Assembly: GCF_019890615.1 (NCBI RefSeq)
Contig: NZ_JAINVZ010000005.1
Location: 124,001-188,000 of the forward strand
Length of the DNA: 64,000 nucleotides
DNA from: Streptantibioticus parmotrematis
GTDB taxonomy: Bacteria > Actinomycetota > Actinomycetes > Streptomycetales > Streptomycetaceae
Reading direction: 5' to 3'
The notes beneath the pieces are model-generated. The model ran no database searches, was not told the origin of the DNA, and saw nothing but the letters and a program-made list of their open reading frames with translations. Below are positions 48,253-62,692 of this stretch, piece by piece; the first letter of the stretch is position 1; each line of letters begins with the position of its first letter. The translations under genes were made by a program, and so were the position numbers.

Positions 48253-50002
48253 AGCGCGCCTCCGGGCTGGTGTGGAACGACGTCAGCAACTCGCGCAGTT
48301 GCTCGGGACCCATGCCGTGGCGGCGCAGCTGGATGTCGTGGACGCAGTTGTCGATGTCGCCCTCGACGCCGTGGACGGTGACCGGCAGCAGGTAGCGGTT
48401 GCGCAGCCACTCGCCGAATCCGCCGTGCGCGCCGTTGTACTCGACCGACAGCACGTTGCGGAACCGCGCCAGCCGCCGCGCGGTCCCGCCGGGCAGCATC
48501 GGGTTGAGCGCCGCGCAGTGCAGGTGCGGCAGGCCCAGGTCCGCGTTGGCCTGCGCCACGAGGGTCGTCGCGTAGCCGAACGTGACCACGGCCGCGCCCT
48601 CGTCCGCCTCGTCGGGCGGGGTGATCCACACACCGCCGTCGATGTCGTCCCGGCAGTCGACGGGCGGCTCGTCGAACCGGGCGTCGACCATGCTGAGCAC
48701 GTGCACCGTCTCCGGCTCGCGCTCCAGCCGGTCGGCGCATGCCTCGAACTCGCCCGGCGTGACAGGCTCGTAGACCCGGGTGTTGGCGACCAGGCCGAGC
48801 AGGTTGAAGGCGTTGGCGGCGCCTCCCCACGCGCCCCAGTTGCGTCCCGCCAGCACCATCAGGTTGCGCACGCTGGTCGACGCCTCGGTGAGCATGCTGA
48901 GCGAGTCCATGTAGTACATCGCGTCGGTGGCGACTACCTTCAGGTGCTCCGGATCCAGTGCCAGGGTCAGGCCGACCCCGAGGGTCTCGGCCAGGCCGAC
49001 GTTCTGGTACTCCACCTGCCCGGGCAGCCCGAACCTGGCCGCCAGGTCCGCGGTGAACACGGCCGTCGGCCGCCCCGACCGCTCGGCCAGCCGCGCCAGT
49101 TGACGACCTCCTGTGGAGGCGAACGTCGGCTTGGCCGCGGTGGCACCGCCCGGACGGCGGAAGCTGTGGCCCTCCTTGCGGGTCCCGCACACCAGGGCCG
49201 CGGGCCCGGGCAGCTCCAGCAACTCGTCCAGGGCGGCTCGCACCACCTCCGTGTCGCCGCCGTCCACCTCCACCACGGTGCGGAAGTAGCTGCGCAGGTA
49301 GTCGCGATTGAGGGGCTTCAGCAGCGGTTCGATGCCCTTGTCGTTGGCGTCGATCACCACGACCAGGTTGTCTAGCCCGGCCTCGTCGCTGAAGCGCACG
49401 CACTCGAACGTGACACCTTCGTGCATCTCGCCGTCACCGGCCAGGCACACCACCTTGCGCCGCTCGCCCCGCCGCTTGAGCTCCCACGCCCTGCTCACCG
49501 CCTGCGCCATTCCCACGCCCAGGCTGTAGCGCATGGTGTTGGCGAATCCCCACTCCTTGTTCACCACCCCGGTCATCGCGCCCTGGTGCAGTGTCGCCAG
49601 CGGTAGGAAGGGCAGGTGACCGCGCACGTACCACTCGGCGTAGAAGCTGGGCGCGATGTGGCCGCGCCCGACGACCAGGTCGGCGCGCGCGGGCCCGTCG
49701 GCACGCGGCACCAGGTCCAGATCGAAGCAGGCCCGCACGATCGGCAGTGACGACAGGCAGCTCTGGTGGTTGCCGGACCCGGCGATCTCGTGCATGCGCA
49801 GCAGCACTTCGGCACTGCCCCGGTAGAGCCGCCCGGGCACCTCGTCGGCGATCCGGCGCATCGCGGGCAGCAGACCGTCGCGCAGCCCGTGTTCTCTCAG
49901 CAGCGCCAACTCGGCTTGGACGGCTTGGTGTTCGGCGGGCGTCAGATGCGGAGCGGCGGTATCCAGCGCGCGTTCGAAGTCGGCCGGTTGCGGGGGCGCC
50001 AT
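48233..50002 (-). CDS. Transketolase-like protein (single chain)
   Basis: The protein has 589 residues, shorter than a full transketolase (about 660) but with both TPP domains. The TPP/Mg motif is CLAGDGEMHEG ... VVVIDANDKG. The pyrimidine-domain glutamate lies in QNVGLAETLGVG, and the C-terminal domain starts GAAVVTFGYATTLVAQA. Donor-sugar residues such as GSGNHQSC replace the usual GHPG... segment, so substrate use may differ. Transketolase-like enzymes in natural-product clusters make or transfer C2 units. It overlaps the aminotransferase gene by 1 bp and the glycosyltransferase gene by 20 bp. Confidence 0.88.
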   Translation of the reverse strand: MAPPQPADFERALDTAAPHLTPAEHQAVQAELALLREHGLRDGLLPAMRRIADEVPGRLYRGSAEVLLRMHEIAGSGNHQSCLSSLPIVRACFDLDLVPRADGPARADLVVGRGHIAPSFYAEWYVRGHLPFLPLATLHQGAMTGVVNKEWGFANTMRYSLGVGMAQAVSRAWELKRRGERRKVVCLAGDGEMHEGVTFECVRFSDEAGLDNLVVVIDANDKGIEPLLKPLNRDYLRSYFRTVVEVDGGDTEVVRAALDELLELPGPAALVCGTRKEGHSFRRPGGATAAKPTFASTGGRQLARLAERSGRPTAVFTADLAARFGLPGQVEYQNVGLAETLGVGLTLALDPEHLKVVATDAMYYMDSLSMLTEASTSVRNLMVLAGRNWGAWGGAANAFNLLGLVANTRVYEPVTPGEFEACADRLEREPETVHVLSMVDARFDEPPVDCRDDIDGGVWITPPDEADEGAAVVTFGYATTLVAQANADLGLPHLHCAALNPMLPGGTARRLARFRNVLSVEYNGAHGGFGEWLRNRYLLPVTVHGVEGDIDNCVHDIQLRRHGMGPEQLRELLTSFHTSPEARYAIART

Positions 50003-51324
50003 CAGCGGGCCCCGTGGGTCTCGTCCAGCGCCTCGGCGAGGGTGTCGCAGACGATACGGGTGTCCTGCTCGCCGGTGACGAACGCCGGGGCGAGCACCAG
50101 CCAGTCGTCCTGGCCCCGGACGATGACTCCGCGCCGCAGGCAGGCGCGGGCCACCCGCTCACCGACGCTGCCGTGCGCCCCGTCCGCGGGGTCGGCGAGC
50201 TTGACGCCGTACAGCAGCCCGAGGGCGCGCACGGTGCCCCGGGTGCCGACCGCCTCCCGCAGCGCGGGCTCGAAACGCCGCGCCAGCGCAGCGATCCGCT
50301 CCGGGTAGCCGTCCCGGCTGAACAGCCGCACCGCGGCCAGGCCCGCCGCGGAGGCGATCGGGTTGGCGGCGTAGGTGTGCGAGGGCGCGAAGGAGACCGC
50401 GCCGGAGCCGTCACCGAGCACCGACGCCACCCGTTCGCCGACGAGTACGGCGGCCAGCGGCGCGTACCCGCCGGAGACGCCCTTGCCGACGCACATCAGG
50501 TCCGGGGTGACCCCGAAGGTCTGGGCCGCGAACGCCTGACCGGTGCGGCCGAAGCCGGTGACGATCTCGTCGAACACCAGCAGCACGCCGTGCCGGTCGC
50601 AGATCTCCCGCAGCCGGTCGAGGTACCCCTGCGGCGCGATGGCCATGCCACGCAGGTGGATCACCGGCTCGACGATGATCGCGGCGACCGAGTCCGGGCC
50701 CTCCGCCTCGATGGTGCGCTCCACCAGGTCCGCCGCGAGCCGCCCGGCCTCCTCGTCGGGTACACCGAGGAACTCCGTGACGGCGTCGGGGGACCACACG
50801 TGCACCGCGCCGGGCAGGCCCGGGCCGAAGCGGCTGACGTCGGGCCGGCCGGTGACCGACAGAGAGCCGAAGGTCGAGCCGTGATAGCCGTGGTAGTAGC
50901 TGAGCACCTTGTAGCGCCCGGCGTCCCCGGTCTCGCGGTGGTAGAGCCGCGCCAGCCGCAGCGCCGCTTCCACCGCCTCGGAGCCGCCGTTGACGAGCTT
51001 GGCGGTGACGATGCCCTCGGGCGCGAGGCGGGTCAACTCCTCGGCCAGCGCCAGGGCGTTGGGGTTGGTGCCGTGCAGCGGCGGGTTGAAGGCCATCCGG
51101 TCCAGCTGCTGCGCGACGGCCGAGCGGATCGGCTCGCAGCCGTAGCCGAAGCAGGTGACGAACACACCGGACATGGCGTCGAGGTACGCCCGGCCCGCGG
51201 TGTCGAACAGCCGGATGCCCTCGCCGCGTTCGAAGAGGATCGAGTCCTGCGAGTGGGGCACCTCGAAGCAGTACGAGGACAGGTCGGCGGGCCAGGTGGG
51301 CGCGCTGGGCGCTTCAACGGTCAT
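50002..51324 (-). CDS. Class III PLP-dependent aminotransferase
   Basis: The protein has 440 residues. The PLP lysine is K281 (CVGKGVSGGYAPLAAV), and the phosphate and aspartate contacts are in LVFDEIVTGFGRTGQAFA, preceded by SYYHGYHGSTFGSLSVTG. Class III enzymes aminate aldehydes and ketones, including sugar and cyclitol ketones in specialised metabolism. It overlaps the kinase-like gene by 11 bp and the transketolase gene by 1 bp. Confidence 0.94.
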   Translation of the reverse strand: MTVEAPSAPTWPADLSSYCFEVPHSQDSILFERGEGIRLFDTAGRAYLDAMSGVFVTCFGYGCEPIRSAVAQQLDRMAFNPPLHGTNPNALALAEELTRLAPEGIVTAKLVNGGSEAVEAALRLARLYHRETGDAGRYKVLSYYHGYHGSTFGSLSVTGRPDVSRFGPGLPGAVHVWSPDAVTEFLGVPDEEAGRLAADLVERTIEAEGPDSVAAIIVEPVIHLRGMAIAPQGYLDRLREICDRHGVLLVFDEIVTGFGRTGQAFAAQTFGVTPDLMCVGKGVSGGYAPLAAVLVGERVASVLGDGSGAVSFAPSHTYAANPIASAAGLAAVRLFSRDGYPERIAALARRFEPALREAVGTRGTVRALGLLYGVKLADPADGAHGSVGERVARACLRRGVIVRGQDDWLVLAPAFVTGEQDTRIVCDTLAEALDETHGAR

Positions 51325-52450
51325 CTTCAGTCCTAGGTAGGTCGGTTCCCTGGGAGGCGGGAGCGGTGGGATCGAGGAGCCGGTGCAGTGCGAGCCGGCG
51401 ACGGGTGTCGAGCAGGTCGAGGTAGCCGGTCCAGGCGGGGGAGAGCAGGTCGCGTTCGAGGATGTCCTTGGCGATGTCCACGATCACCGGGACCGCGTGG
51501 ACGACGAGCAGGGGCATCAGCAGCCCCAGTTCTTCGGGGGCGAGCAGGCCCTCGCGCAGGGCGGCGCGCTCGAAGCGCCCCGCCGCCCGCGCCCGCGCGG
51601 CGTCGCCACCGCGCACCCGCGCCGCGGTGTCCGCGATCCAGGCGAGGTCCAGCAGCCGGTCGCCCACCGTCATGTTGTCGAAGTCGAGGACCGCGACCAC
51701 GTGGGGTTCCTCCGCGCCGTCGAGGAGGAAGTGGTGGTGGTGCAGGTCGGCGTGGACCACCCGGCGGCGACCCGGCGGGGGCGTGGCCACGTCGGGGGAG
51801 GAGCCGGTCAGCAGCGGCCGGGCCCGCTCCAGACCCTCCAGCGCGGTCCGCGCGATGCCACCCCACGCGTCGTCCCGCGCCCCCGCCAGCGGCAGCAGCC
51901 GGTCCACGCCGTCGTCCAGCGCGGCCCGCCAGTCCTCCTCCGCGACGAGCGGGGGCACCGGCAGCGGGACCAGATCGTCGACCACCCGCCGCGGCAGGCC
52001 GTCGAGGACCCGGCGCAGCCGCAGTCCGGTGGCGATCACCGCGTCCGCCTGGTCCGGCGCGGGCCGGCCCGACGCGCCGCCGGGCGCGAGCGGGACGAGT
52101 TCGCACACGTGGCCGTCGTGCTCGGCGACGGCCGCGCCGGTCGTGGTCGGCACCGGCACCGGCACCGGGACGCCGGCGTCCCGGCAGGCCCGCAGTACCC
52201 GCCCCTTGACGTGGTGGAAGGCGGGCGGGCGAGCCGCTTCGCGGTCGAGCTGGACCTTGAAGACGTGATCGCGTCCGCGGTGGGCGACCCGCCACAGCGC
52301 CGCCGTGTGACTGAGCGGCGCCGTGCCGTCCGAACGCAGTGGCCGCGGGCGGGAGTTCGGGGGAACGTCCCAGTGCTCGGCCAGGGCGTCGGCGACCCAC
52401 GGGCGCGAACCCACCGGGGCACCGGACCGCGGACGCTGATGTGACGTCAT
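51314..52450 (-). CDS. Aminoglycoside-phosphotransferase-fold kinase
   Basis: The protein has 378 residues. APH/choline-kinase features are WRVAHRGRDHVFKVQLDRE (ATP lysine), a modified Brenner catalytic loop RRVVHADLHHHHFLLDG (HxD retained, four consecutive His where H-x-N is usual) and LDFDNMTVGDRLLDLAW (DFD in place of DFG/D). It probably phosphorylates a sugar, cyclitol or amino alcohol, either as a biosynthetic step or as self-protection. The ATG at 52450 has only a weak ribosome-binding site. First gene of the four-gene leftward operon, divergent from the ebo operon. Confidence 0.85.
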   Translation of the reverse strand: MTSHQRPRSGAPVGSRPWVADALAEHWDVPPNSRPRPLRSDGTAPLSHTAALWRVAHRGRDHVFKVQLDREAARPPAFHHVKGRVLRACRDAGVPVPVPVPTTTGAAVAEHDGHVCELVPLAPGGASGRPAPDQADAVIATGLRLRRVLDGLPRRVVDDLVPLPVPPLVAEEDWRAALDDGVDRLLPLAGARDDAWGGIARTALEGLERARPLLTGSSPDVATPPPGRRRVVHADLHHHHFLLDGAEEPHVVAVLDFDNMTVGDRLLDLAWIADTAARVRGGDAARARAAGRFERAALREGLLAPEELGLLMPLLVVHAVPVIVDIAKDILERDLLSPAWTGYLDLLDTRRRLALHRLLDPTAPASQGTDLPRTEDDR

Positions 52451-52546
52451 TCCTTCAGCCCTCACCCGTTCCTCGCGTGACGTCGCAGCCGGGGACGTAC
52501 GCCGCCGGTTGCCTGAAGGCGATGGTGAACGCGGGGCCCGGCCGCT

Positions 52547-52561
52547 CACATCACCTGGTCG
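52547..52561 (+). promoter_or_regulatory. Cluster element site D (CACATCACCTGGTCG)
   Basis: Plus-strand match to the shared element (followed by GGTA, as at site C). It lies in the divergent gap, 96 bp from the kinase start and 157 bp from the HAD start, so it could control both large operons. Confidence 0.8.
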
Positions 52562-52718
52562 GGTAGCCGGGTGCCGGGCCGCGCGCACCCCGGCGCACCC
52601 CCGCTCACCTGGGGGATGTGGGCCGTTCACCCGCGACCCAGCATGGGGTTCGCCAGAAGGAGGACCACCGCCACGAAGCGGCCGGGTCCCCGGGACCCCG
52701 AGCCGAAAGGACGCCGAC

Positions 52719-53432
52719 GTGCCGGCCGACAACACTCCACCGGAGCGCGTGGAGGCGGTGGTGTTCGACCACGACGGAACGCTGGTGGACTCCATCACCC
52801 CGGACTACGAAGCCTGTTCACAGGTGTTCCGCGAGTACGGCGCCGAACTGCCGGCCGCCGTGTGGGCGGCGGACGTCTGCGGCAACACCGACGGCTATCC
52901 GGCGCTCTTCGCGCGACTGGCCGAGAGCATCGGCCGGCACGACGCCGCGGCACGGATGCGCGAGCGGCTGTCCGAACTGTGGGCCGCCTCCCTGCTGCCC
53001 GGCTCCGTTCCCCTGATGCCCGCCGTCCGCGATGTCCTCGACGGACTGCGGGAATCGGGGGTGCGGCTGGCCGTCGCCTCGGCGGCGCCGCGCACCTGGG
53101 TGACGGGCTGTCTGGAGCACCACAGACTGCTCGACCGCTTCCAGGCCGTCGTCGCCGCCGAGGACGTCGAACGGCGCAAGCCCGCGCCCGACGCCTACCT
53201 GGCGGCAGCCGCCCGGCTGGGCGTGCCGCCCGAGCGGTGCGTCGCGGTGGAGGACTCCCTCACCGGGGTCGACGCCGCCCTGGCCGCCGGGATGCGGGTG
53301 ATCGCGGTGCCCACGCCCGTCACCCGGTCCCTCGACTACTCCCGCGCGGACCACGTGCTGCCCGGCCTCGGCGGACTGACCGCCGCGCTACGGGCCCCGT
53401 CCGACAGAAAGGCAGCCCATGTCCGACACTGA
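52719..53432 (+). CDS. HAD-superfamily phosphatase / phosphoglucomutase-like
   Basis: The protein has 237 residues from GTG 52719 (GAAAGGA). HAD motif I is VVFDHDGTLVDS (nucleophile and acid/base Asp), motif II serine is in LAVASAAPRTW, motif III lysine is in RRKPAPDAY, and motif IV is CVAVEDSLTGVDAALAAGM. The alpha-helical cap fits beta-phosphoglucomutase-like sugar phosphatases. It is the first gene of the ten-gene operon and overlaps the next by 14 bp. It probably dephosphorylates a sugar or cyclitol phosphate of the pathway. Confidence 0.92.
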   Translation: MPADNTPPERVEAVVFDHDGTLVDSITPDYEACSQVFREYGAELPAAVWAADVCGNTDGYPALFARLAESIGRHDAAARMRERLSELWAASLLPGSVPLMPAVRDVLDGLRESGVRLAVASAAPRTWVTGCLEHHRLLDRFQAVVAAEDVERRKPAPDAYLAAAARLGVPPERCVAVEDSLTGVDAALAAGMRVIAVPTPVTRSLDYSRADHVLPGLGGLTAALRAPSDRKAAHVRH

Positions 53433-54777
53433 CGAAGCACGCACGGCCGTCTCCCTCGGGGCGGCGGGCACGTCCCCGGCGGCCGGGGCGCGGGCCCGGC
53501 TGATCGACCACCTCTGCGAGGCCGCGGAACTCGAACACTCGCTGTGCCTCCAGTACCTGTACGCCGCGTTCTCCCTCAAGACCCGCGCCGACGAGGGCGG
53601 GGTCGACGAGGTGCAGGTCGAGCGCGTCCGCGAGTGGAAGGGCCAACTGCTGCTGCTGAGCCGCGAGGAGATGCTCCACCTCGGCCTGGTGCTCAACCTG
53701 CTCGCGGCGGTCGGCGGCGCCCCGTACCTGCAACGCCCCAGCTTCCCGCAGCCGGAGCGCTACTACCCCATCGGCGTCGTCTCCGCCCTGGAACCGTTCG
53801 GCGCGAAGGCGATCGAGCGCTTCCTGCGGTACGAGATGCCGACCGCGCTGCTCGGCGAGGTCACCCCCGGGCACGTGGGCGCCGACGGCGAACGCATGAC
53901 CGTCGGCATGCTCTACGAGCGCGTCCGCGAAGCCGTGACGACCATCGACGAGAAGGAGCTGTTCATCGGCTCCGAGTACCGCCAGATCGACACCGCCGCG
54001 GTGATCGACCCGGAGGGCGTCTTCGAGGACGCGGTCGCCACGGGGTACGGCGTCGAGCCGTTCCCGGTGACCGACCGGGCCTCCGCGCTGCGCGCCATCG
54101 ACCTGATCATCGAACAGGGCGAGGGGGCCGAGGCCGACTCGCCGCAGTCGCACTACGGGCGACTCCTGCGGGTGCGCGCCGAGTTCGAGGCGGAGAGGCG
54201 GGCCGCGGCGGACGCCGGCACCGTCTTCGAACCCGCCAGGCCCACCCTGTCCAACCCGGTGCTGCGCGGCCCCGTCGACGGGGACGGCGCCGTGGTCATC
54301 ACCGAGCCGCTGACCCGCGCCGTCGCCGAGGTCTTCAACGACGGCTACGCCCTGATGGTCTTGATGCTGCTGCGCTTCTACGGGCGCACGGACGACACAC
54401 CGGCGCAGATGCGCATGCTCCAGGAAGTCGTCTTCTTCCCGCTGATGACGATGTTCGTACGCCCGCTGGGCGAGGTGCTCACCGAACTGCCCGCGATCAG
54501 CGGCCAGGACGCGGCCACGGCGACCGCCGGTGCGCCCTTCGAGTTCAGCCGCGGCCTCCAGCTCATTCCCGAACGCGCCGTCGCCTACCAGGTGTTCGCC
54601 GAACGCCTCGCCGGCCTCGCGTCCGCCGCCGCCCGGCTCACCGGCCGCTGCGACCAGACGGACGCCGTCAGTCCCGCGCTGCGCAAGCGCGTCGCGTTCA
54701 TCGCGGAGAACGTCGGCCTGGTGGCACGGCGCTTCGCCGACCGACTCAACGAAGGAGCAGACCGTGCCGACGCGTGA
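53419..54777 (+). CDS. VioB-like ferritin-fold protein
   Basis: The protein has 452 residues. Residues about 25-250 match the ferritin-like domain of the VioB (iminophenylpyruvate dimer synthase) family: ELEHSLCLQYLYAAFSLK supplies E and H ligands, SREEMLHLGLVLNLLAAVGG supplies E-x2-H, and PYLQRPSFPQPERYYPIG is the family signature. A second helical half follows. Such proteins bind a metal centre and in violacein-type pathways catalyse oxidative coupling. It is not full VioB (about 1000 aa). It is coupled to the next gene by a 14-bp overlap. Confidence 0.85.
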   Translation: MSDTDEARTAVSLGAAGTSPAAGARARLIDHLCEAAELEHSLCLQYLYAAFSLKTRADEGGVDEVQVERVREWKGQLLLLSREEMLHLGLVLNLLAAVGGAPYLQRPSFPQPERYYPIGVVSALEPFGAKAIERFLRYEMPTALLGEVTPGHVGADGERMTVGMLYERVREAVTTIDEKELFIGSEYRQIDTAAVIDPEGVFEDAVATGYGVEPFPVTDRASALRAIDLIIEQGEGAEADSPQSHYGRLLRVRAEFEAERRAAADAGTVFEPARPTLSNPVLRGPVDGDGAVVITEPLTRAVAEVFNDGYALMVLMLLRFYGRTDDTPAQMRMLQEVVFFPLMTMFVRPLGEVLTELPAISGQDAATATAGAPFEFSRGLQLIPERAVAYQVFAERLAGLASAAARLTGRCDQTDAVSPALRKRVAFIAENVGLVARRFADRLNEGADRADA

Positions 54778-55633
54778 ACTGACGTGTGAGTTCGGGGGAT
54801 GGTTCATGTGCCGCCTGGCGACCGACCCCGACCCGACCGACGAACCGAGGGGGGTGAGCGGCTCCACCTTCGCACTCGCCGGTGAGCCCGACCTCGACCG
54901 GATCATCGTGCTGGGCGACCCCCGCCCCGAGGTGCGCCGCAGCCACATGCCGCCGGTGGGCGTCACCGTCACCCGGGCCGCCGTCGGCGCGGTGGACGTG
55001 CCGGAGCTGACCGGGGCACGCGTGGACCTGCTCGGCGACCCGGTGTTCGAGAACCGCAACACCGTGCTGACCTTCGCGGGCCGCGAGCCGATCGTCCCGT
55101 TCCACCTGCGCATCAGCGCCCCCGGCGCCCGGATCGAACGGCGCATGCTGATGTGGTCCGACGGCCCCGAGGACCCGCCGGTCCACCTCATCCCCCGCGC
55201 CCAGCTGGAGAAGTTCGGCGGCCGGGTCTTCCGCACCGACCCCGACCTGATCCGCTCCGCCACCGGCATCGCCGACCCCCTGCTCGACCGCGAGGAACGC
55301 CACCGCAGGCTCGTGGAGGACCTGGAGCGCGAGACCGACCCGGTGCGCCGCGCCGGAACCGAGAAGCGCGTGCGGGAGCTGGAGATCGGACTGGCCCAGC
55401 CGGCCGACGAGCGGGTGGTCAACATGACGGCCATCGAGGAGTTCCGCTTCCCGCTGACCGGCGAAGCCGATGTCGAGGGCGAGGCGCTCACGGACCTCGC
55501 GCCGGACACCCGGGCGCCGTGGACCGTGGACTTCTGGATGGGCGGCTGGGACCCCGACGTGATGTGCGGATACTTCAAGGGCAGCCTGACCGTGCCGCTG
55601 CGCGAGGACGCCGACGGGCGGGAGGAACGGTGA
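54764..55633 (+). CDS. Conserved hypothetical protein, partner of the ferritin-fold gene
   Basis: The protein has 289 residues. GTG 54764 follows GAAGGAG, overlapping the previous gene by 14 bp. It is soluble and beta-rich in the N-terminal two thirds (TFALAGEPDLDRIIVLGDPRPEVRRSHMPPVGVTV ... VPFHLRISAPGARIERRMLMWSDG), with a charged helical insert and a C-terminus FRFPLTGEADVEGEAL ... DFWMGGWDPDVMCGYFKGSLTVPL. No known domain is recognised. The tight coupling suggests a complex or shared reaction with the VioB-like protein. VioB itself has extra domains that might be supplied here in trans. Confidence 0.7.
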   Translation: MPTRELTCEFGGWFMCRLATDPDPTDEPRGVSGSTFALAGEPDLDRIIVLGDPRPEVRRSHMPPVGVTVTRAAVGAVDVPELTGARVDLLGDPVFENRNTVLTFAGREPIVPFHLRISAPGARIERRMLMWSDGPEDPPVHLIPRAQLEKFGGRVFRTDPDLIRSATGIADPLLDREERHRRLVEDLERETDPVRRAGTEKRVRELEIGLAQPADERVVNMTAIEEFRFPLTGEADVEGEALTDLAPDTRAPWTVDFWMGGWDPDVMCGYFKGSLTVPLREDADGREER

Positions 55634-56784
55634 GCGCCCCGACGCGCACCGGCGTGTGGCTGGTCGGGGCGTGCGGCTCCGTCGCCACGACGACCGTGGT
55701 GGGAGCCGCCGCGATCCGCGCCGGGCTGGCCGCGCCCACCGGATGCGTCAGCGAACTGCCCGCGTTCCGCACCGCCGGACTCCCGCCGCTGGAGGACCTG
55801 GTCCTCGGCGGCCACGACCTCACCGTCACCCCCCTCGCCAAGCGCGCCGAACTGCTCGCCCAGGCAGGGGTGTTGCCGGCCGCACTGCTGCCCGCGCTCG
55901 CCCCCGACCTCGCCGCCGCCGACGCGTGGACGCGCCCGGTCCCGCAAGGGATGAGCCAGCGGCGGCTGATCGAGGCGCTGGCGGACGACATCACCGCCTT
56001 CCGTACCGAGTGCGGACTCGACCGCGTGGTCGTGGTCAACGTCGCCACGACCGAGCCGCACACCCCACCGCACCCCGCCTGGGCGTCCGCCGAAGCGCTG
56101 CGGGACGCCCTCGCCGCAGACGAGGAACCGCTGCCCTACAGCTCGGTGCACGCCTGCGCAGCGCTGCGGGCCGGATGCGGATACGTCGACTTCACCCCGT
56201 CCACCGGCTGCCGCGTGCCCGCGCTGCACGAGCTCGCCACGGCCTCGGCACTGCCGTACGCGGGCAGCGACGGCAAGACCGGTGAGACGCTGGTGAAGTC
56301 CGTCCTGGCCCCGATGTTCGACCGGCGGGCGCTGCGGGTGCGCGCGTGGTCCGGCACCAACCTGCTGGGCGGGGGCGACGGCGCCGCGCTCGCCGAGCCC
56401 GAACGGGCGCGCAGCAAGACCGAGTCCAAGAGCCGGGTGCTGCGCGAGGGCCTCGGCTACGGCGTCGACGGCGACGTGCACATCCACCACGTGCCGGCCC
56501 TCGGCGACTGGAAGACCGCGTGGGACCACATCGCGTTCGACGGATTCCTGGGCGTGCGGATGTCCATGCAGTTCGTGTGGCAGGGCTGCGACTCGGCGCT
56601 GGCCGCCCCGCTCGTGCTCGACCTGGCCCGGTTCACCGCGCTCGCCCACCGCGCGGGGGTGGCGGGACCGGTCGCGGAACTGGGCTTCTTCTTCAAGGAC
56701 CCGGTCGGCAGCGACGTGCACGGCCTGGAGGAGCAGTTCGAGCGACTGCGGACCTGGGCGACGAGCGTGGGCGGTGCGGCATGA
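55630..56784 (+). CDS. Inositol-3-phosphate-synthase-like protein (possible EboD replacement)
   Basis: The protein has 384 residues. The N-terminal Rossmann loop is GVWLVGACGSVATTTVVGAA. Family elements follow: GYVDFTPSTGC, AGSDGKTGETLVKSVLAPMF, WSGTNLLGGGDGAAL, RSKTESKSRVL and a tetramer-interface segment DHIAFDGFLGVRMSMQFVW. Inositol-phosphate synthase cyclises glucose 6-phosphate through NAD-dependent aldol chemistry. The lysines in GKTGETLVKS and SKTESKS are candidate catalytic residues. It occupies the position where other ebo clusters carry the dehydroquinate-synthase-like EboD, another sugar-phosphate cyclase. GTGA overlap with the previous gene. Confidence 0.85.
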   Translation: MSAPTRTGVWLVGACGSVATTTVVGAAAIRAGLAAPTGCVSELPAFRTAGLPPLEDLVLGGHDLTVTPLAKRAELLAQAGVLPAALLPALAPDLAAADAWTRPVPQGMSQRRLIEALADDITAFRTECGLDRVVVVNVATTEPHTPPHPAWASAEALRDALAADEEPLPYSSVHACAALRAGCGYVDFTPSTGCRVPALHELATASALPYAGSDGKTGETLVKSVLAPMFDRRALRVRAWSGTNLLGGGDGAALAEPERARSKTESKSRVLREGLGYGVDGDVHIHHVPALGDWKTAWDHIAFDGFLGVRMSMQFVWQGCDSALAAPLVLDLARFTALAHRAGVAGPVAELGFFFKDPVGSDVHGLEEQFERLRTWATSVGGAA

Positions 56785-57653
56785 GGACGCGACGGGCCCG
56801 CGCCCTGGTACGGCTGGTCCGGGCCCCCGCCGCGCTGACCGTGCCCGGCGACGTGCTCACCGGCGCCGCCGCCTCCGGTGCCCCCCTGACCCCGCGCACC
56901 GCGGGGCTCGCCGGGGCGTCGGTGTGCCTGTACTGGGCGGGCATGGCACTCAACGACTACGCCGACCGCCACGTCGACGCGGTCGAACGACCGGAACGCC
57001 CCATCCCGTCCGGCCAGATCGCCCCCGCCACCGCGCTGGGCGTCGCCGCCGGACTGACCGGCCTCGGCCTCGGCCTGGCGGCGGTGGGCGGCGGCCGCGC
57101 CGGACTCGCGGTCGGCACGGCCCTGGCGAGCGACGTGTGGGCGTACGACCTGGGCCTGAAGCACACGGCGGCCGGACCGGCGGCCATGGCCGGGGCCCGC
57201 GCCCTCGACGTGCTGCTGGGCGCGTGCGCGGGCGGCCGCACCCGTGCCGCGCTGCCCGCCGCCGCGGCGGTGGCCGCGCACACCGCGGGCGTGACGGTGC
57301 TCAGCCGGGGCGAGGTCGACGGCACCGGCCGCGCCACCCCCGCCGCGACGCTCGCCGCGTCCTGCGCGGTCGCCACGGCCGCGGCGCTCCTCGCGGGACG
57401 GACACCGCGACGGCGTGCCCTCACCGGCGTACTGGCCGGCGCGTACCTCGCGGGGTGCGGCGCGGCCCAACTGGCGGCCGTGCGCACGCCGTCGGCGGGC
57501 CGGGTGCGCGGCGCGGTGACCGCGGGCATCAACGCCTTCCTGCCGTTGCAGGCCGCGTTGTGCGCGGGCGCGGGAGCGTCGGCCCCCGCGCTCCCACTCG
57601 CCCTCGGCTGGCCGCTGGCACGCGGGCTCTCCCGGAAGGTGTCGCCGACGTGA
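56781..57653 (+). CDS. eboC: UbiA-family prenyltransferase, EboC
   Basis: The protein has 290 residues and about eight membrane helices. The first aspartate motif is N58-D59 in ALNDYADRHVDAVERPERPIPSG. The second is the SDVWAYDLGLKHTAAGP region. UbiA enzymes transfer a prenyl group, or a polyol on a prenyl phosphate, at the membrane. In the ebo cluster EboC is one of the conserved members. ATGA overlap with the cyclase gene and GTGA overlap with the isomerase gene. Confidence 0.9.
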   Translation: MRTRRARALVRLVRAPAALTVPGDVLTGAAASGAPLTPRTAGLAGASVCLYWAGMALNDYADRHVDAVERPERPIPSGQIAPATALGVAAGLTGLGLGLAAVGGGRAGLAVGTALASDVWAYDLGLKHTAAGPAAMAGARALDVLLGACAGGRTRAALPAAAAVAAHTAGVTVLSRGEVDGTGRATPAATLAASCAVATAAALLAGRTPRRRALTGVLAGAYLAGCGAAQLAAVRTPSAGRVRGAVTAGINAFLPLQAALCAGAGASAPALPLALGWPLARGLSRKVSPT

Positions 57654-58585
57654 CCGGCCGCCACCGGTTCGGCTTCGGCACCAACGGCCTGCGCGACCAC
57701 CGGCTCCCCGACGCGCTGCGCCTGCTGGCCGACCTGGGATACGACGGTGTGGCCCTCACCCTGGACCACGGCCACCTCGACCCCTACGCGCCCGGCCTCG
57801 TCCAGGAGGTGGACCGCACGGCGTCGCTGCTGGCGGAACTGGGTCTGGCGGTGGTCGTGGAGACCGGAGCCCGCTATCTGCTCGACCCCGCGCGCAAGCA
57901 CCAGCCGACCCTGCTGAGCGACGAAGGCCGCGAGCGCCGGGTCGACCTGCTGACCCGGGCCGTGCGGATCGCCGCCGGGCTCGGTGCCGAGGCGCTGTCG
58001 TTCTGGAGCGGCACCGCCCCCTCCGGCGTGCCGGAAGCCGTCCTGTGGGACCGGCTGGCGCAAGGCTGTGACACCGTGACCCGGGAGGCGGACCGCCACG
58101 GTGTCCCGCTCGGGTTCGAACCGGAGCCGGGCATGTTCGTCGACACCCTCGACCGCTACGACGCGCTGCTGGGCCGCCTCGGCCGGCCCGACGCGCTCGG
58201 CCTCACGCTGGACATCGGCCACTGCCGCTGCCTGGAACCCCTGGACGTCCCCGCCTGCGTGGCGCGGGCGGCCGGACGGCTGGTCAACGTCCAGATCGAG
58301 GACATGGCGCGCGGACGGCACGAACACCTGGAGTTCGGCGACGGCGAGATCGACTTCCCGCCGGTCATGACGGCGCTGGCCGACAGCGGCTACACGGGCC
58401 TGGTCAGTGTGGAACTGCCCCGGCACAGCCACGACGGCCCGGGCGTCGCCGACCGCTCGCTGCGCTTCCTCGAATCCGCAGCGCACGCAGCACGCGCAGC
58501 ACGCGCCGGGCGGCAGGTAGCGCACGCTGCGCAGGCCGCCCGAGCACCGCGAACAGAGCCCGCCGCACGAGAGGGCACACCGTGA
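57650..58585 (+). CDS. Sugar phosphate isomerase/epimerase (AP_endonuc_2 barrel)
   Basis: The protein has 311 residues. The TIM barrel has metal ligands in GFEPEPGMF (E), LTLDIGHCRCLE (D, H), VQIEDMARGRHEHLEFGDGEIDF (D, H) and VSVELPRHSH (E). This fits xylose-isomerase-like epimerases or isomerases. The last 40 residues are an Ala/Arg/His low-complexity tail (AAHAARAARAGRQVAHAAQA), likely dispensable. It is embedded in the ebo operon between UbiA and EboA with 4-bp overlaps on both sides. Confidence 0.9.
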   Translation: MTGRHRFGFGTNGLRDHRLPDALRLLADLGYDGVALTLDHGHLDPYAPGLVQEVDRTASLLAELGLAVVVETGARYLLDPARKHQPTLLSDEGRERRVDLLTRAVRIAAGLGAEALSFWSGTAPSGVPEAVLWDRLAQGCDTVTREADRHGVPLGFEPEPGMFVDTLDRYDALLGRLGRPDALGLTLDIGHCRCLEPLDVPACVARAAGRLVNVQIEDMARGRHEHLEFGDGEIDFPPVMTALADSGYTGLVSVELPRHSHDGPGVADRSLRFLESAAHAARAARAGRQVAHAAQAARAPRTEPAAREGTP

Positions 58586-59232
58586 TCGACGCACTTCACG
58601 ACACCCTCGCCGCCCGCCTCCCCGCCCCGCAGTGGGAGCGGCTCGGCCAGTGGCGGCGCCGGGTCTCCGAAAGCCCGCACGACGTAAGGGAGTTCTTCCC
58701 CCGGGCCGGACGCGAGATCGGCCGCGGCGACCTCGTCGGCCCCGCCGAGACCGGCCATCCGTGCCGGGGCTGGCGGACGGACGACGCGGCACGCACCCTG
58801 CTGCTCGCCGCCCTGCCGCAGCGCGGCGACGACCTGGTGGCCGAGCTGCGGTGGCTGTACGAGACGGGGGACGCCGCCGAACGGCACGCCGTGCTGCGCT
58901 CGCTGGACCCGCTGGACCTGCGGGCGGACACGGACACGCTCGACGGCGCGCTGCCGCTGGTCCACGACGCCCTGCGCGCCAACGACCTGCGGATGGTGAC
59001 CGCCGCGGTCGGCGACTACACCGCCCGCCACCTGCCCGCCCCCGCGTGGCGGCACGCCGTGCTCAAGTGCGTCTTCACCGGCATCCCCCTGTCGGCCGTC
59101 AGCGGACTCGACGAGCGGGCCGACCCCGAACTGCTGCGCATGCTCAACGACTTCGCCGCCGAACGCACGGCCGCGGGCCGCGCCGTGCCACCGGACGTCG
59201 CCACGTTCCTGCGCGCGCACCCGGCCCCGTGA
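58582..59232 (+). CDS. eboA: EboA-family protein
   Basis: The protein has 216 residues, all-helical. The N-terminus LHDTLAARLPAPQWERLGQWRRRV and the middle WRTDDAARTLLLAALPQ ... ELRWLYETGDAAERHAVLRSLDPLDLR, then KCVFTGIPLSAVSGLDERADPELLRML, match the EboA domain that defines ebo clusters. Its biochemical function is unknown. In cyanobacteria the ebo cluster is needed to deliver a scytonemin precursor to the periplasm. GTGA overlap with the upstream gene. Confidence 0.88.
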   Translation: MIDALHDTLAARLPAPQWERLGQWRRRVSESPHDVREFFPRAGREIGRGDLVGPAETGHPCRGWRTDDAARTLLLAALPQRGDDLVAELRWLYETGDAAERHAVLRSLDPLDLRADTDTLDGALPLVHDALRANDLRMVTAAVGDYTARHLPAPAWRHAVLKCVFTGIPLSAVSGLDERADPELLRMLNDFAAERTAAGRAVPPDVATFLRAHPAP

Positions 59233-59255: not shown

Positions 59256-60134
59256 ATGCGGCTTTTCGATCCGCACATCCACATGACATCGAGGACCACC
59301 GACGACTACGCGGCGATGCGCGCGGCAGGGGTGCGGGCGCTGGTCGAGCCGTCCTTCTGGCTCGGCCAGCCGAGGACGTCGGTCGGCAGCTTCGTCGACT
59401 ACTTCGACGCCCTGATCGGCTGGGAACCCTTCCGCGCGGCCCAGTTCGGCATCAGCCACCACTGCGCGGTCGCCCTCAACCCCAAGGAGGCCAACGACCC
59501 GCGCTGCCGTGAGGTGCTGGACCTGCTGCCCCGCTACCTCGTCAAGGACCGGGTGGTGGCGGTGGGCGAGATCGGCTACGACTCGATGACGCCCGAGGAG
59601 GACACCGCGTTCGCCGCGCAACTCGCCCTCGCCGTCCGCCACGACCTGCCCGTCCTCGTGCACACCCCGCACCGCGACAAGGCGTCCGGCACCCGGCGCA
59701 CCCTCGACGTGGTGCGCGAGTCGGGCATCGCCCCGGAACGGGTGGTCGTCGACCACCTCAACGAACTCACCGTCGCGGCGGTCCTGGACGCGGGCTGCTG
59801 GGCGGGGTTCTCCGTCTACCCGCAGACCAAGATGGACGAGCACCGCATGGTCACGCTGCTGCGCGAATACGGGCTGGAGCGGATACTCGTCAACTCCGCC
59901 GCGGACTGGGGCCGCAGCGATCCCCTCAAGACCCGCGCCACCGCGGACACCATGCTCGCCTCGGGCTTCACCACGGCGGACGTCGAGCGGGTGATGTGGC
60001 ACAACCCGGTCGCGTTCTACGGGCAGAGCGGCCGGCTCGACCTGACCGGACCCGCCCCGGACATCGGCGAGTCGCACGAGGGCAACTCCATCGAGCGCGG
60101 GCCCCGGCCGGCCGCGCGGACGGCGGCGGGCTGA
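59256..60134 (+). CDS. eboB: TatD-like metal-dependent hydrolase, EboB
   Basis: About 292 residues. ATG 59256 is preferred because GAGGAG stands 7 bp upstream, and an in-frame GTG at 59229 overlapping the EboA stop is possible. The amidohydrolase-fold metal ligands are H7 and H9 (FDPHIHMTS), E in VAVGEIGYD, H in VLVHTPHRD, H in VVVDHLNE and D in VNSAADWGRSD. This EboB branch of the TatD family lacks DNase context. The substrate is unknown. Confidence 0.88.
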   Translation: MRLFDPHIHMTSRTTDDYAAMRAAGVRALVEPSFWLGQPRTSVGSFVDYFDALIGWEPFRAAQFGISHHCAVALNPKEANDPRCREVLDLLPRYLVKDRVVAVGEIGYDSMTPEEDTAFAAQLALAVRHDLPVLVHTPHRDKASGTRRTLDVVRESGIAPERVVVDHLNELTVAAVLDAGCWAGFSVYPQTKMDEHRMVTLLREYGLERILVNSAADWGRSDPLKTRATADTMLASGFTTADVERVMWHNPVAFYGQSGRLDLTGPAPDIGESHEGNSIERGPRPAARTAAG

Positions 60135-60137
60135 CCG

Positions 60138-61316
60138 ATGCGTTTCCTGCACCCCGACGGCACCACCGTCCACCTCGCGTACTGCGCCAACGTGCACCCC
60201 GCGCCCGACCTGCGCGCGGTCCTCGCCCAACTCGCCACCCACGCCGAGCCGGTGCGCGAGCGGCTGGGCACCGACCGGCTCGGCGTCGGCCTCTGGCTGG
60301 CCCGCGAGGTGGCCGCCGAACTGGTCGCCGAGCCCGCGTCGGTGCGTGCCCTGCGGGCCGAACTCGACCGCAGGGGACTGGAAGTGGTGACCCTCAACGG
60401 GTTCCCCTATCGCGGGTTCGGTGACGCGGTGGTCAAGCACCGGGTCTACACACCCGACTGGTCCGACCCGGCGCGGCTGCGCCACACCCTCGATCTGGCC
60501 CGGCTGCTGGCCGAGTTGATGCCCGACGACGCCGACCACGCGAGCGTCTCGACCCTGCCGCTCGGCTGGGCCGGCTCGTGGCCCGCGGAACGGGCCGCAC
60601 TCGCCCGCCGCCACCTCGACACGCTCAGCGCCGAACTGGCGGACCTGGCCGAACGCACCGGACGCGACGTGCGGATCGCCTTCGAGCCCGAACCGGGCTG
60701 CGTGCTGGAGACCACGGGTGATGCCGTGCACCACCTGGCCCCGGCGGCCGGGCCCCGCCTCGGCGTCTGCCTGGACACCTGCCACCTCGCCGTCGCCCAC
60801 GAACAGCCCGCCGACGCGCTGGCCGCGCTGGCGGACGCGGGCCTGGAGGTGGTGAAGCTCCAGGCGTCGGCCGCGCTGGTCGCCCCGCGGCCGCACACGT
60901 CCGGCGTACGCGAGGCACTGTCCCCGTACGCGGAACCACGCTTCCTGCACCAGACCCGCGAGCCCTCGCCGGACGGCCTGCTGGGCGTCGACGACCTCGG
61001 TACGGCGCTGGCGTGCGGACCCGGTGGGGCCGGTGGCCTGCCCGGCCGGGAACCGTGGCGCATCCACTTCCACATGCCCCTCAGCGCCGCACCCCCGCCA
61101 CCGCTCACCACCACCCGGCCGGTGCTGGAGGAGACCGTCGCCCTGCTGCTGGGCGGGCCGGTGGCCAGGACCGCGCACGTCGAGGTGGAGACCTACACCT
61201 GGCCCGTGCTCCCGGACGCCCCGGGACGCGACGCCCTCGTCGACGGCATCGCTGCCGAGCTCGCCTGGGCCCGCGAACTGCTGCTCCACAACGGCCTGAA
61301 GGAGCTGAACCGGTGA
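60138..61316 (+). CDS. eboE: EboE, xylose-isomerase-like TIM-barrel protein
   Basis: The protein has 392 residues. It starts with the EboE hallmark LAYCANVHP, continues LGVGLWLAREVAAEL and VTLNGFPYRGFG, and then shows metal-binding elements IAFEPEPGC, LGVCLDTCHLAVAHE and WRIHFHMPL. These are TIM-barrel isomerase-like sites, but the substrate of EboE is unknown. It starts 3 bp after eboB and overlaps eboF by 4 bp. Confidence 0.9.
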   Translation: MRFLHPDGTTVHLAYCANVHPAPDLRAVLAQLATHAEPVRERLGTDRLGVGLWLAREVAAELVAEPASVRALRAELDRRGLEVVTLNGFPYRGFGDAVVKHRVYTPDWSDPARLRHTLDLARLLAELMPDDADHASVSTLPLGWAGSWPAERAALARRHLDTLSAELADLAERTGRDVRIAFEPEPGCVLETTGDAVHHLAPAAGPRLGVCLDTCHLAVAHEQPADALAALADAGLEVVKLQASAALVAPRPHTSGVREALSPYAEPRFLHQTREPSPDGLLGVDDLGTALACGPGGAGGLPGREPWRIHFHMPLSAAPPPPLTTTRPVLEETVALLLGGPVARTAHVEVETYTWPVLPDAPGRDALVDGIAAELAWARELLLHNGLKELNR

Positions 61317-62692
61317 GCCGCGTCCTCGTGCTCGACGTCGTGGGACTCACCCCGCGGCTGCTGGCCCACATGCCGAACCTCAGGGCGGTCGCCGAGCGGG
61401 GCTTCAGCGCGCCGCTGACGACCGTGCTGCCCGCCGTGACCTGCTCGGCGCAGTCCACCTTCCTCACCGGCGAACCGCCGTCCGCGCACGGCGTCGTGGG
61501 CAACGGCTGGTACTTCCGCGAGCTGGGCGACGTGCTCTTCTGGCGCCAGCACAACGCGCTGGTCGGCGGTGAGAAGGTGTGGGACGCGGCCCGCCGCCAC
61601 CGGCCCGGCTTCACCGTGGCCAACGTGTGCTGGTGGTACGCGATGGGCGCCGACGTGGACTGGACGGTCACGCCCCGCCCGGTCTACTACGCCGACGGCC
61701 GCAAGGAGGCGGACTGCTACACCTTCCCGGCCGGGCTCCACGACGAACTGACCTCCCGCTTCGGGCGCTTCCCGCTGTTCACCTACTGGGGGCCGACCGC
61801 GGGGCTGCCCTCCTCGCGGTGGATCGTCTCCGCCGCGCGGCACCTGCTGCGCGAGCACCGCCCCGACCTGTCGCTCGTCTACGTCCCCCACCTCGACTAC
61901 GACCTCCAGCGCTTCGGTCCCGCGTCGCGCCGAGCCGCCGCGGCGGCCCGGGACGTCGACGCGGTCCTCGCGCCGCTGCTGCGGGACGCCGCCGCCGAGG
62001 GCGTGACGGTGGTGGCCCTGAGCGAGTACGGCATCACCCCGGTCGACCGGCCGGTGGACGTCAACCGCGTGCTGCGCCGGGAAGGGCTGCTGCGGGTCCA
62101 CACCCAGGACGGCATGGAGTACCTGGACCCGTGGACCTCGCGCGCGTTCGCGGTCGCCGACCACCAGGTCGCGCACGTCTACGTCCGCTCCCCGGACGAC
62201 GTGCCCCGCGTGCGGTCGCTGCTGGCCGGACTCCCGGGCGTGGAACGGGTCCTGGACGGCGAGGGCAAGCGCGCGCACGGACTGGACCACGAGCGGTCCG
62301 GCGAGCTCGTCGCGGTCGCCGACGCGCGCTCGTGGTTCACGTACTACTACTGGCTCGACGACGACCGGGCGCCGGACTTCGCCAGGACGGTGGAGATCCA
62401 CCGCAAGCCCGGCTACGACCCCGCGGAGCTGTTCTTCGACCCGGCCGATCCGCTCGCCCGGGCGCGGGCCGCGGGCGCGCTGCTGCGCAAGCGGCTGGGC
62501 CTGCGCTACCGCATGGACGTCGTGCCGCTCGACCCGTCCGTGGTACGCGGCAGCCACGGCCGGCTGACGGAGGATCCGCAGGACGGCCCGGTGCTGCTGT
62601 GCTCCGACCCGGGCGCGGCCACCGACCGGATGGCGGCCACACAGGTCAAGGCGCTGCTGCTGCGGCTGGCGGGTGCCGACGGCCTCGGCTGA
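61313..62692 (+). CDS. eboF: EboF, alkaline-phosphatase-superfamily phosphodiesterase/pyrophosphatase
   Basis: The protein has 459 residues. The nucleotide-pyrophosphatase fold shows metal-binding D8 (LVLDVVGL), nucleophile T43 (LPAVTCSAQSTFLTG), YVPHLDYDLQRFGP, ALSEYGI and HGLDHERSGELV. These give two metal sites for hydrolysing phosphodiesters or phosphomonoesters. Last gene of the ebo operon, ending at a perfect hairpin terminator. No signal peptide is seen. Confidence 0.9.
   Translation: MSRVLVLDVVGLTPRLLAHMPNLRAVAERGFSAPLTTVLPAVTCSAQSTFLTGEPPSAHGVVGNGWYFRELGDVLFWRQHNALVGGEKVWDAARRHRPGFTVANVCWWYAMGADVDWTVTPRPVYYADGRKEADCYTFPAGLHDELTSRFGRFPLFTYWGPTAGLPSSRWIVSAARHLLREHRPDLSLVYVPHLDYDLQRFGPASRRAAAAARDVDAVLAPLLRDAAAEGVTVVALSEYGITPVDRPVDVNRVLRREGLLRVHTQDGMEYLDPWTSRAFAVADHQVAHVYVRSPDDVPRVRSLLAGLPGVERVLDGEGKRAHGLDHERSGELVAVADARSWFTYYYWLDDDRAPDFARTVEIHRKPGYDPAELFFDPADPLARARAAGALLRKRLGLRYRMDVVPLDPSVVRGSHGRLTEDPQDGPVLLCSDPGAATDRMAATQVKALLLRLAGADGLG

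What the first reader, a model, noticed from the sequence alone, without database searches (positions are those of the whole stretch)
55630..57653. Inositol-phosphate-synthase-like cyclase in the place of EboD, next to UbiA
Known ebo clusters carry a dehydroquinate-synthase-like EboD. Here the gene overlapping eboC encodes a protein with inositol-3-phosphate-synthase motifs. Both are NAD-dependent sugar-phosphate cyclases, so this is a functional substitution and suggests that the ebo module needs a cyclic polyol, possibly as headgroup for the UbiA product.
Basis: partly seen in the sequence, partly recalled or inferred. Interest (0 to 1): 0.8.

Follow-up and report, generated by a model that had tools for sequence, protein, structure and literature searches.

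The report
Inositol synthase replaces EboD in ebo
In actinobacteria, and in sampled haloarchaea and a Gemmatimonadota bacterium, the widespread but unexplained ebo gene cluster carries an archaeal-type inositol-phosphate synthase plus a sugar-isomerase-like partner where other bacteria carry the unrelated cyclase EboD, which supports the idea that the ebo pathway is built around a ring-shaped sugar alcohol joined to a prenyl lipid.

Summary
Window 55630-56784 encodes a myo-inositol-1-phosphate synthase (Ino1) with all catalytic residues, overlapping a UbiA prenyltransferase by 4 bp in a tight operon with TIM-barrel, EboA, EboB, EboE and EboF genes. The genome (99.99% complete) has no EboD: its one dehydroquinate-synthase-family gene is AroB. 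The protein is not the genome's mycothiol Ino1; its closest solved relative is Archaeoglobus mIPS.

It is the rule, not a local oddity. Among 134 ebo loci, 100 carry Ino1, 7 EboD, none both. EboD was not found in 395 Actinomycetes genomes, 98 of which match EboE. The Ino1 form also occurs in Gemmatirosa and haloarchaea. The replacing unit is Ino1 plus the TIM-barrel gene (99 of 100 Ino1 loci, 0 of 7 EboD loci); the pair recurs in an unrelated YcaO/PIG-L cluster. In Gemmatirosa, EboB and EboF group with EboD-type clusters but UbiA with Ino1-type ones, as if cyclase and prenyltransferase were exchanged together.

This supports role-level, non-homologous substitution and the published isoprenoid-cyclitol hypothesis. 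That the cyclitol is the UbiA acceptor is inferred. I found no description of the variant in the papers searched. Verdict: new variant of a known kind.

The parts
52719..53432 (+). HAD-family hydrolase (possible phosphatase), just upstream; link to the operon unproven
   Evidence: PF13419 106.6 bits; start as; no hit at 1e-5 in other ebo loci
53419..54777 (+). ferritin-like protein resembling the C-terminal part of VioB; overlaps neighbours; accessory to the core
   Evidence: PF12902 126 bits; TIGR04492 partial, below cut-off; weak relatives next to EboD-type ebo in L033 and L187
54764..55633 (+). protein of no known family, overlapping both neighbours
   Evidence: no Pfam match; GTG start at 54764 inside the preceding gene; no relatives in other ebo loci
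55630..56784 (+). archaeal-type myo-inositol-1-phosphate synthase (Ino1) in the role of EboD
56781..57653 (+). UbiA-superfamily prenyltransferase, SCO3242 family (eboC position)
   Evidence: NF045897 357.6 bits, cut-off 260; Asp-rich motif NDYADRHVD read in the translation
57650..58585 (+). xylose-isomerase-like TIM barrel, regular partner of this Ino1
   Evidence: PF01261 137 bits; ketose-3-epimerase/isomerase fold, pLDDT 93.8; linked to an Ino1 in all 20 genomes that have it
58582..59232 (+). EboA-domain protein
   Evidence: NF035938 165 bits, cut-off 50
59256..60134 (+). EboB, TatD-like metal hydrolase
   Evidence: PF01026 57.8 bits; start read at ATG 59256
60138..61316 (+). EboE, TIM barrel
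   Evidence: NF035939 411.5 bits, cut-off 250
61313..62692 (+). EboF, type I phosphodiesterase/nucleotide pyrophosphatase
   Evidence: PF01663 221 bits

Best explanation
This is an ebo cluster of a second biochemical type. Ino1 cyclises a hexose phosphate (most likely glucose 6-phosphate) to an inositol phosphate; the TIM-barrel partner epimerises or isomerises it or a keto form; the resulting cyclitol (phosphate) is the polar acceptor that the membrane prenyltransferase joins to a prenyl chain; EboB, EboE and EboF, shared with the EboD type, carry out later hydrolytic or isomerising steps. Ino1 plus the TIM barrel thus take the role that EboD, an unrelated cyclase of the dehydroquinate-synthase superfamily, has in other bacteria. 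Shown here: the genes, the intact catalytic residues, absence of EboD from the genome, mutual exclusion of the two cyclases, the Ino1-TIM linkage, and co-segregation of prenyltransferase type with cyclase type. Inferred: the substrate, the step order, and that the cyclitol is the prenyl acceptor.
For: Mutual exclusion in 134 loci: 100 Ino1, 7 EboD, 0 both; TIM in 99 of 100 Ino1 loci and 0 of 7 EboD loci. No EboD in 395 Actinomycetes genomes, 98 of which match EboE (the same query finds EboD of three phyla with E below 1e-108 in fetched loci). Catalytic residues conserved. Distinct from the mycothiol Ino1 of the same genome with 100/100 support. All 20 actinobacterial genomes with the TIM carry an Ino1 of this type within about 7 kb, in 7 of them away from ebo. 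Gemmatirosa (L030) has EboF and EboB that group with EboD-type clusters but a UbiA that groups with Ino1-type ones (SH-aLRT 92). Twelve of 13 genomes holding an Ino1-less ebo copy have this kind of Ino1 elsewhere. UbiA relatives include geranylgeranylglycerol-phosphate geranylgeranyltransferases, which prenylate a polyol phosphate.
Against: No substrate or product is known. The only assayed EboC relative farnesylated quinoline acids, not cyclitols (PMC9235831), though polyols do not appear in the passages read. In cyanobacteria ebo is tied to moving the scytonemin monomer to the periplasm (PMC6282210), which does not obviously need a cyclitol. Fifteen loci with enough flank carry neither cyclase. 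The Gemmatirosa recombinant is a single case on quick trees. The EboD sample outside Actinomycetota is small (7 plasmid loci), backed by PMC5133447.
Confidence: 0.62

Rival explanations
1. Two different pathways share EboB, EboE and EboF: Ino1-type and EboD-type clusters make different cyclitol lipids, so the cyclases are alternatives, not functional equivalents. (Overlaps with the best explanation; differs in denying equivalence.)
For: The prenyltransferases fall in separate groups and separate NCBIfam equivalogs; the Ino1 type has an extra TIM barrel; EboD-superfamily products lack phosphate (PMC5133447).
Against: The shared genes and complete exclusion suggest a common logic; nothing tested here separates same role from different product.
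Confidence: 0.45
2. The enzyme is an Ino1 homologue with other chemistry, such as the five-membered-cyclitol-phosphate synthase Ari2, so the product is a cyclitol but not inositol.
For: Ari2 (6k96) is in the same superfamily; conserved lysines do not prove the substrate.
Against: The protein is far closer to A. fulgidus mIPS (7.7e-71) than to Ari2 (2.2e-11) or Mycobacterium Ino1 (3.6e-11).
Confidence: 0.2
3. Ino1 is a passenger that supplies inositol for mycothiol, phosphatidylinositol or the neighbouring natural-product cluster.
For: The window has a nearby sugar-like gene group (aminotransferase, glycosyltransferase, APH); some Streptomyces ebo clusters lie inside natural-product clusters.
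Against: Order and tight spacing are conserved over 100 loci in many gene contexts; the genome has its own mycothiol-type Ino1; the lineage is separate.
Confidence: 0.06
4. Artefact: misassembly, or a pseudogene next to ebo.
For: None found.
Against: Open frame, intact catalytic residues, same arrangement in dozens of independent genomes.
Confidence: 0.01

Closest known systems
ebo operon (eboABCDEF) of cyanobacteria, Bacteroidetes and eustigmatophyte plastids (PMC5133447, PMC6282210)
   Same: EboA, EboB, EboE, EboF and a UbiA prenyltransferase in one operon with one NAD-dependent sugar-phosphate cyclase
   Different: The cyclase is Ino1, not EboD; an extra TIM-barrel gene; prenyltransferase of the SCO3242 family; gene order Ino1-UbiA-TIM-A-B-E-F
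Archaeal myo-inositol-1-phosphate synthase (A. fulgidus, PDB 1u1i)
   Same: Fold, 42% identity over 270 aligned positions, all catalytic residues
   Different: Sits in ebo; paired with a TIM barrel; substrate untested
Mycothiol INO1 (TIGR03450) of Actinomycetota
   Same: Same superfamily and Pfam domains
   Different: 40 bits against a cut-off of 638; separate clade; the genome has its own copy
Ino1-HD-methyltransferase-Gfo/Idh-MBL-YcaO-TIM-GT4-PIG-L cluster (L036, L035, L185, L171-L174)
   Same: Same Ino1 type and same TIM barrel together
   Different: No ebo genes; apparently another, possibly glycoside, product
SCO3242/SCO3243 of the S. coelicolor CDA region
   Same: NCBIfam names this prenyltransferase family after SCO3242; PMC3610822 lists SCO3242 'putative transferase' and SCO3243 'myo-inositol phosphate synthase' among CDA-cluster genes
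   Different: Not named ebo or discussed as a cyclase replacement there; the locus itself was not examined here

Membership tests
myo-inositol-1-phosphate synthase (Ino1) | NAD_binding_5 plus Inos-1-P_synth domains | tested here: met
   1.3e-50 and 2.1e-32, over cut-offs
myo-inositol-1-phosphate synthase (Ino1) | catalytic-site asparagine, aspartate and four lysines | tested here: met
myo-inositol-1-phosphate synthase (Ino1) | converts glucose 6-phosphate to inositol 3-phosphate | not testable with these tools
   needs an enzyme assay
mycothiol INO1 (TIGR03450) | score over equivalog cut-off | tested here: not met
   40 vs 638 bits
ebo operon | EboA, EboB, EboE, EboF present and adjacent | tested here: met
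ebo operon | EboC (NF035940) over cut-off | tested here: not met
   123 vs 250 bits; instead SCO3242 family 357 vs 260
ebo operon | EboD, DHQ-synthase superfamily cyclase | tested here: not met
   absent from cluster and genome; hence filed as a variant, not as a canonical ebo operon
sugar phosphate cyclase (DHQS) superfamily | PF01761 domain in the cyclase | tested here: not met
   no PF01761 match in the window protein, present in Azospirillum EboD

The most novel reading that the evidence does not exclude
The ebo pathway exists in two non-homologous versions that start from different sugar phosphates, and cyclase, TIM barrel and prenyltransferase move as one interchangeable headgroup cassette on a constant EboB/EboE/EboF core. 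Its Ino1 version would make a so far undescribed prenylated inositol (phosphate) lipid in actinobacteria and haloarchaea.
Probability: 0.35. Interest if true: 0.8.

Novelty: new variant of a known kind. Interest (0 to 1): 0.62.

Why it matters
The ebo operon is spread over many phyla, was captured by algal plastids (PMC5133447), and is tied to scytonemin precursor export in Nostoc and nematode resistance in Pseudomonas (PMC6282210), yet its product is unknown. Replacement of its cyclase by an unrelated enzyme of known chemistry is independent support for a cyclitol-derived product, and the Ino1 version offers a much easier test because the expected substrate, glucose 6-phosphate, and product, inositol phosphate, are standard reagents that can be isotope-labelled, and laboratory Streptomyces strains can be used.

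Tried and rejected
Searching for eboD elsewhere in the genome: only AroB. Treating Ino1 as the mycothiol enzyme: rejected by score and tree. Treating the association as local: rejected by the survey. A literature description of ino1 in ebo: none found in the searched library; 'inositol' does not occur in the main text of PMC5133447 or PMC6282210. Surveying other phyla by whole genomes failed because a plasmid locus cannot serve as centre, so non-actinobacterial sampling rests on plasmid records. The named-genome scan kept only the 80 best hits, all actinobacterial. EboE-only loci (L028, L200, L216, L221-L227) were set aside as not full ebo clusters. A link of the Ino1-less subtype to an inositol monophosphatase was considered, but the best family hit is histidinol-phosphatase-like and the gene is not constant, so it was not used. 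Whether the Saccharomonospora clusters of PMC9235831 carry EboD could not be read, as figures are not held.

Full report
What is there. They are followed by a xylose-isomerase-like TIM barrel (57650-58585), an EboA-domain protein, TatD-like EboB, EboE and EboF, most junctions being 4-bp overlaps. Upstream, a ferritin-like gene and a gene of no known family overlap into the operon. EboE and EboA are over their NCBIfam cut-offs. The prenyltransferase belongs to the SCO3242 family (357 bits, cut-off 260) rather than EboC proper (123 bits, cut-off 250).

Is it a real inositol-phosphate synthase? Both Pfam domains are present. The best solved relative is Archaeoglobus fulgidus mIPS (7.7e-71), ahead of Bacteroides, eukaryotic, Thermotoga, Ari2 and Mycobacterium enzymes; a predicted model (pLDDT 82.5) has the same best match. 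Residues N255, K274, K278, K306, D332 and K367 of the archaeal enzyme are all present and invariant in 17 ebo Ino1 proteins; N255, K278 and K367 are named as mutated active-site positions in PDB titles, and PMC11348189 discusses K278, K367 and N255. The role of K274, K306 and D332 is from my own knowledge of the family. Residues alone do not prove the substrate.

Is EboD missing? The genome (99.99% complete) has one DHQ-synthase-family gene, which lies beside genes that read as chorismate synthase and shikimate dehydrogenase, i.e. it is AroB. It has three Ino1-family genes; the tree separates the window protein from the mycothiol-type copies with full support.

How general is it? In a sample of 296 Actinomycetota genomes EboE occurs in 14, and 13 of these have a closely related Ino1 a few kb from it; in the fourteenth (G279) a more distant Ino1 and its TIM are on another contig. 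In 395 Actinomycetes genomes EboE matched 98 and EboD none. The zero is meaningful because the same EboD query detects proteobacterial, deinococcal and Bacteroidota EboD with E below 1e-108 in the fetched loci. Over 134 loci with an ebo core, 100 carry Ino1, 7 EboD, none both; 15 with adequate flank carry neither and the rest are cut by contig ends. The EboD loci are from Azospirillum, Roseivivax, Ketogulonicigenium, Mycetohabitans, Deinococcus, Aureibacter and Salipiger. Outside Actinomycetota the Ino1 form occurs in Gemmatirosa and, with TatD, UbiA, two TIM barrels and EboF, in the haloarchaea Halocatena and Natronococcus.

The unit that replaces EboD. The TIM barrel is in 99 of 100 Ino1 loci and in none of the EboD loci. 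Among 296 Actinomycetota genomes, all 20 with this TIM also have this type of Ino1 within about 7 kb, including seven where the pair is not next to ebo. The four of those seven whose contigs were read in full are a conserved cluster Ino1-HD-methyltransferase-Gfo/Idh-MBL-YcaO-TIM-GT4-PIG-L, also seen in Roseomonas, Methylobacterium and Hymenobacter. The same two genes therefore recur together in two unrelated pathways, which argues that the TIM acts on the Ino1 product or a derivative. Its predicted fold is that of metal-dependent ketose 3-epimerases and isomerases (pLDDT 93.8). The TIM and Ino1 trees give compatible groups.

A recombinant cluster. In Gemmatirosa, EboF falls among EboD-type clusters (a starred branch) and EboB pairs with Deinococcus (100), yet its UbiA joins the Ino1-type UbiAs (SH-aLRT 92) and its cyclase is Ino1 with the TIM. 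The simplest reading is that cyclase, TIM and prenyltransferase were exchanged together on an EboD-type background. This is what one expects if the prenyltransferase recognises something made by the cyclase. It is one case on quick trees, so it is suggestive only.

The loci without a cyclase. A Streptomyces subtype (L014, L046, L055, L063 and others) has UbiA-TIM-EboA-B-E-F and no Ino1; where read (L046, L055, L063) it is preceded by a CrtI/CrtO-like oxidoreductase. Of 13 genomes holding an Ino1-less copy, 12 have an ebo-type Ino1 elsewhere, so the cyclase could act in trans. The base rate in Streptomyces is itself high, so this is only moderate support.

Known work. PMC5133447 defined ebo, placed EboD in the sugar phosphate cyclase superfamily and proposed an isoprenoid-cyclitol product; it noted actinobacterial EboA fused to a xylose-isomerase-like domain but does not mention inositol. 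PMC6282210 ties ebo to scytonemin precursor export. PMC9235831 showed a flavobacterial EboC-type enzyme farnesylating 8-hydroxyquinoline-2-carboxylic acid. PMC3610822 lists SCO3242 and SCO3243 (myo-inositol phosphate synthase) in the CDA cluster. I found no paper describing Ino1 as the cyclase of ebo; the library is incomplete, so priority cannot be claimed with certainty.

Verdict. Which cyclase is ancestral is open.

Noticed in passing
L036 7641-16801; L035; L185; L171-L174: Conserved nine-gene cluster Ino1-HD-methyltransferase-Gfo/Idh-MBL-YcaO-TIM-GT4-PIG-L in Actinomycetota, Alphaproteobacteria and Bacteroidota; Ino1, GT4 and PIG-L recall mycothiol synthesis, but YcaO and the TIM do not. 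Possibly an undescribed inositol glycoside pathway.
   Followed up: partly
window 53419-54777; L033 4005-5087; L187 2856-4124: Ferritin-like gene (resembling the VioB C-terminal part) directly upstream of ebo in the window and beside EboD-type ebo in Mycetohabitans and Aureibacter.
   Followed up: partly
L014, L046, L055, L063, L110: Second Streptomyces ebo subtype without any cyclase, preceded (where read) by a CrtI/CrtO-like FAD oxidoreductase; its TIM genes form one clade.
   Followed up: partly
L193, L206: ebo clusters of one actinobacterial family carry a levoglucosan/inositol-dehydrogenase-like Gfo/Idh gene near UbiA and lack the TIM (L206 also lacks Ino1, with a sugar-binding protein gene alongside).
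   Followed up: partly
L223-L227: Short EboE-like proteins matching only the first ~240 profile positions, with no other ebo genes, recurring in one actinobacterial family.
   Followed up: no
L200, L216: Full-score EboE homologues beside pyruvate-dehydrogenase-like E1 genes and without other ebo genes.
   Followed up: no
L189 6026-7225: ScyD/ScyE-family gene just upstream of a Streptomyces Ino1-type ebo cluster, recalling the scytonemin link of ebo in cyanobacteria.
   Followed up: no
window 46891-52798 (minus strand): Divergent gene group next to ebo: glycosyltransferase-like, transketolase-like, class III aminotransferase and APH-family phosphotransferase; possible natural-product genes.
   Followed up: partly
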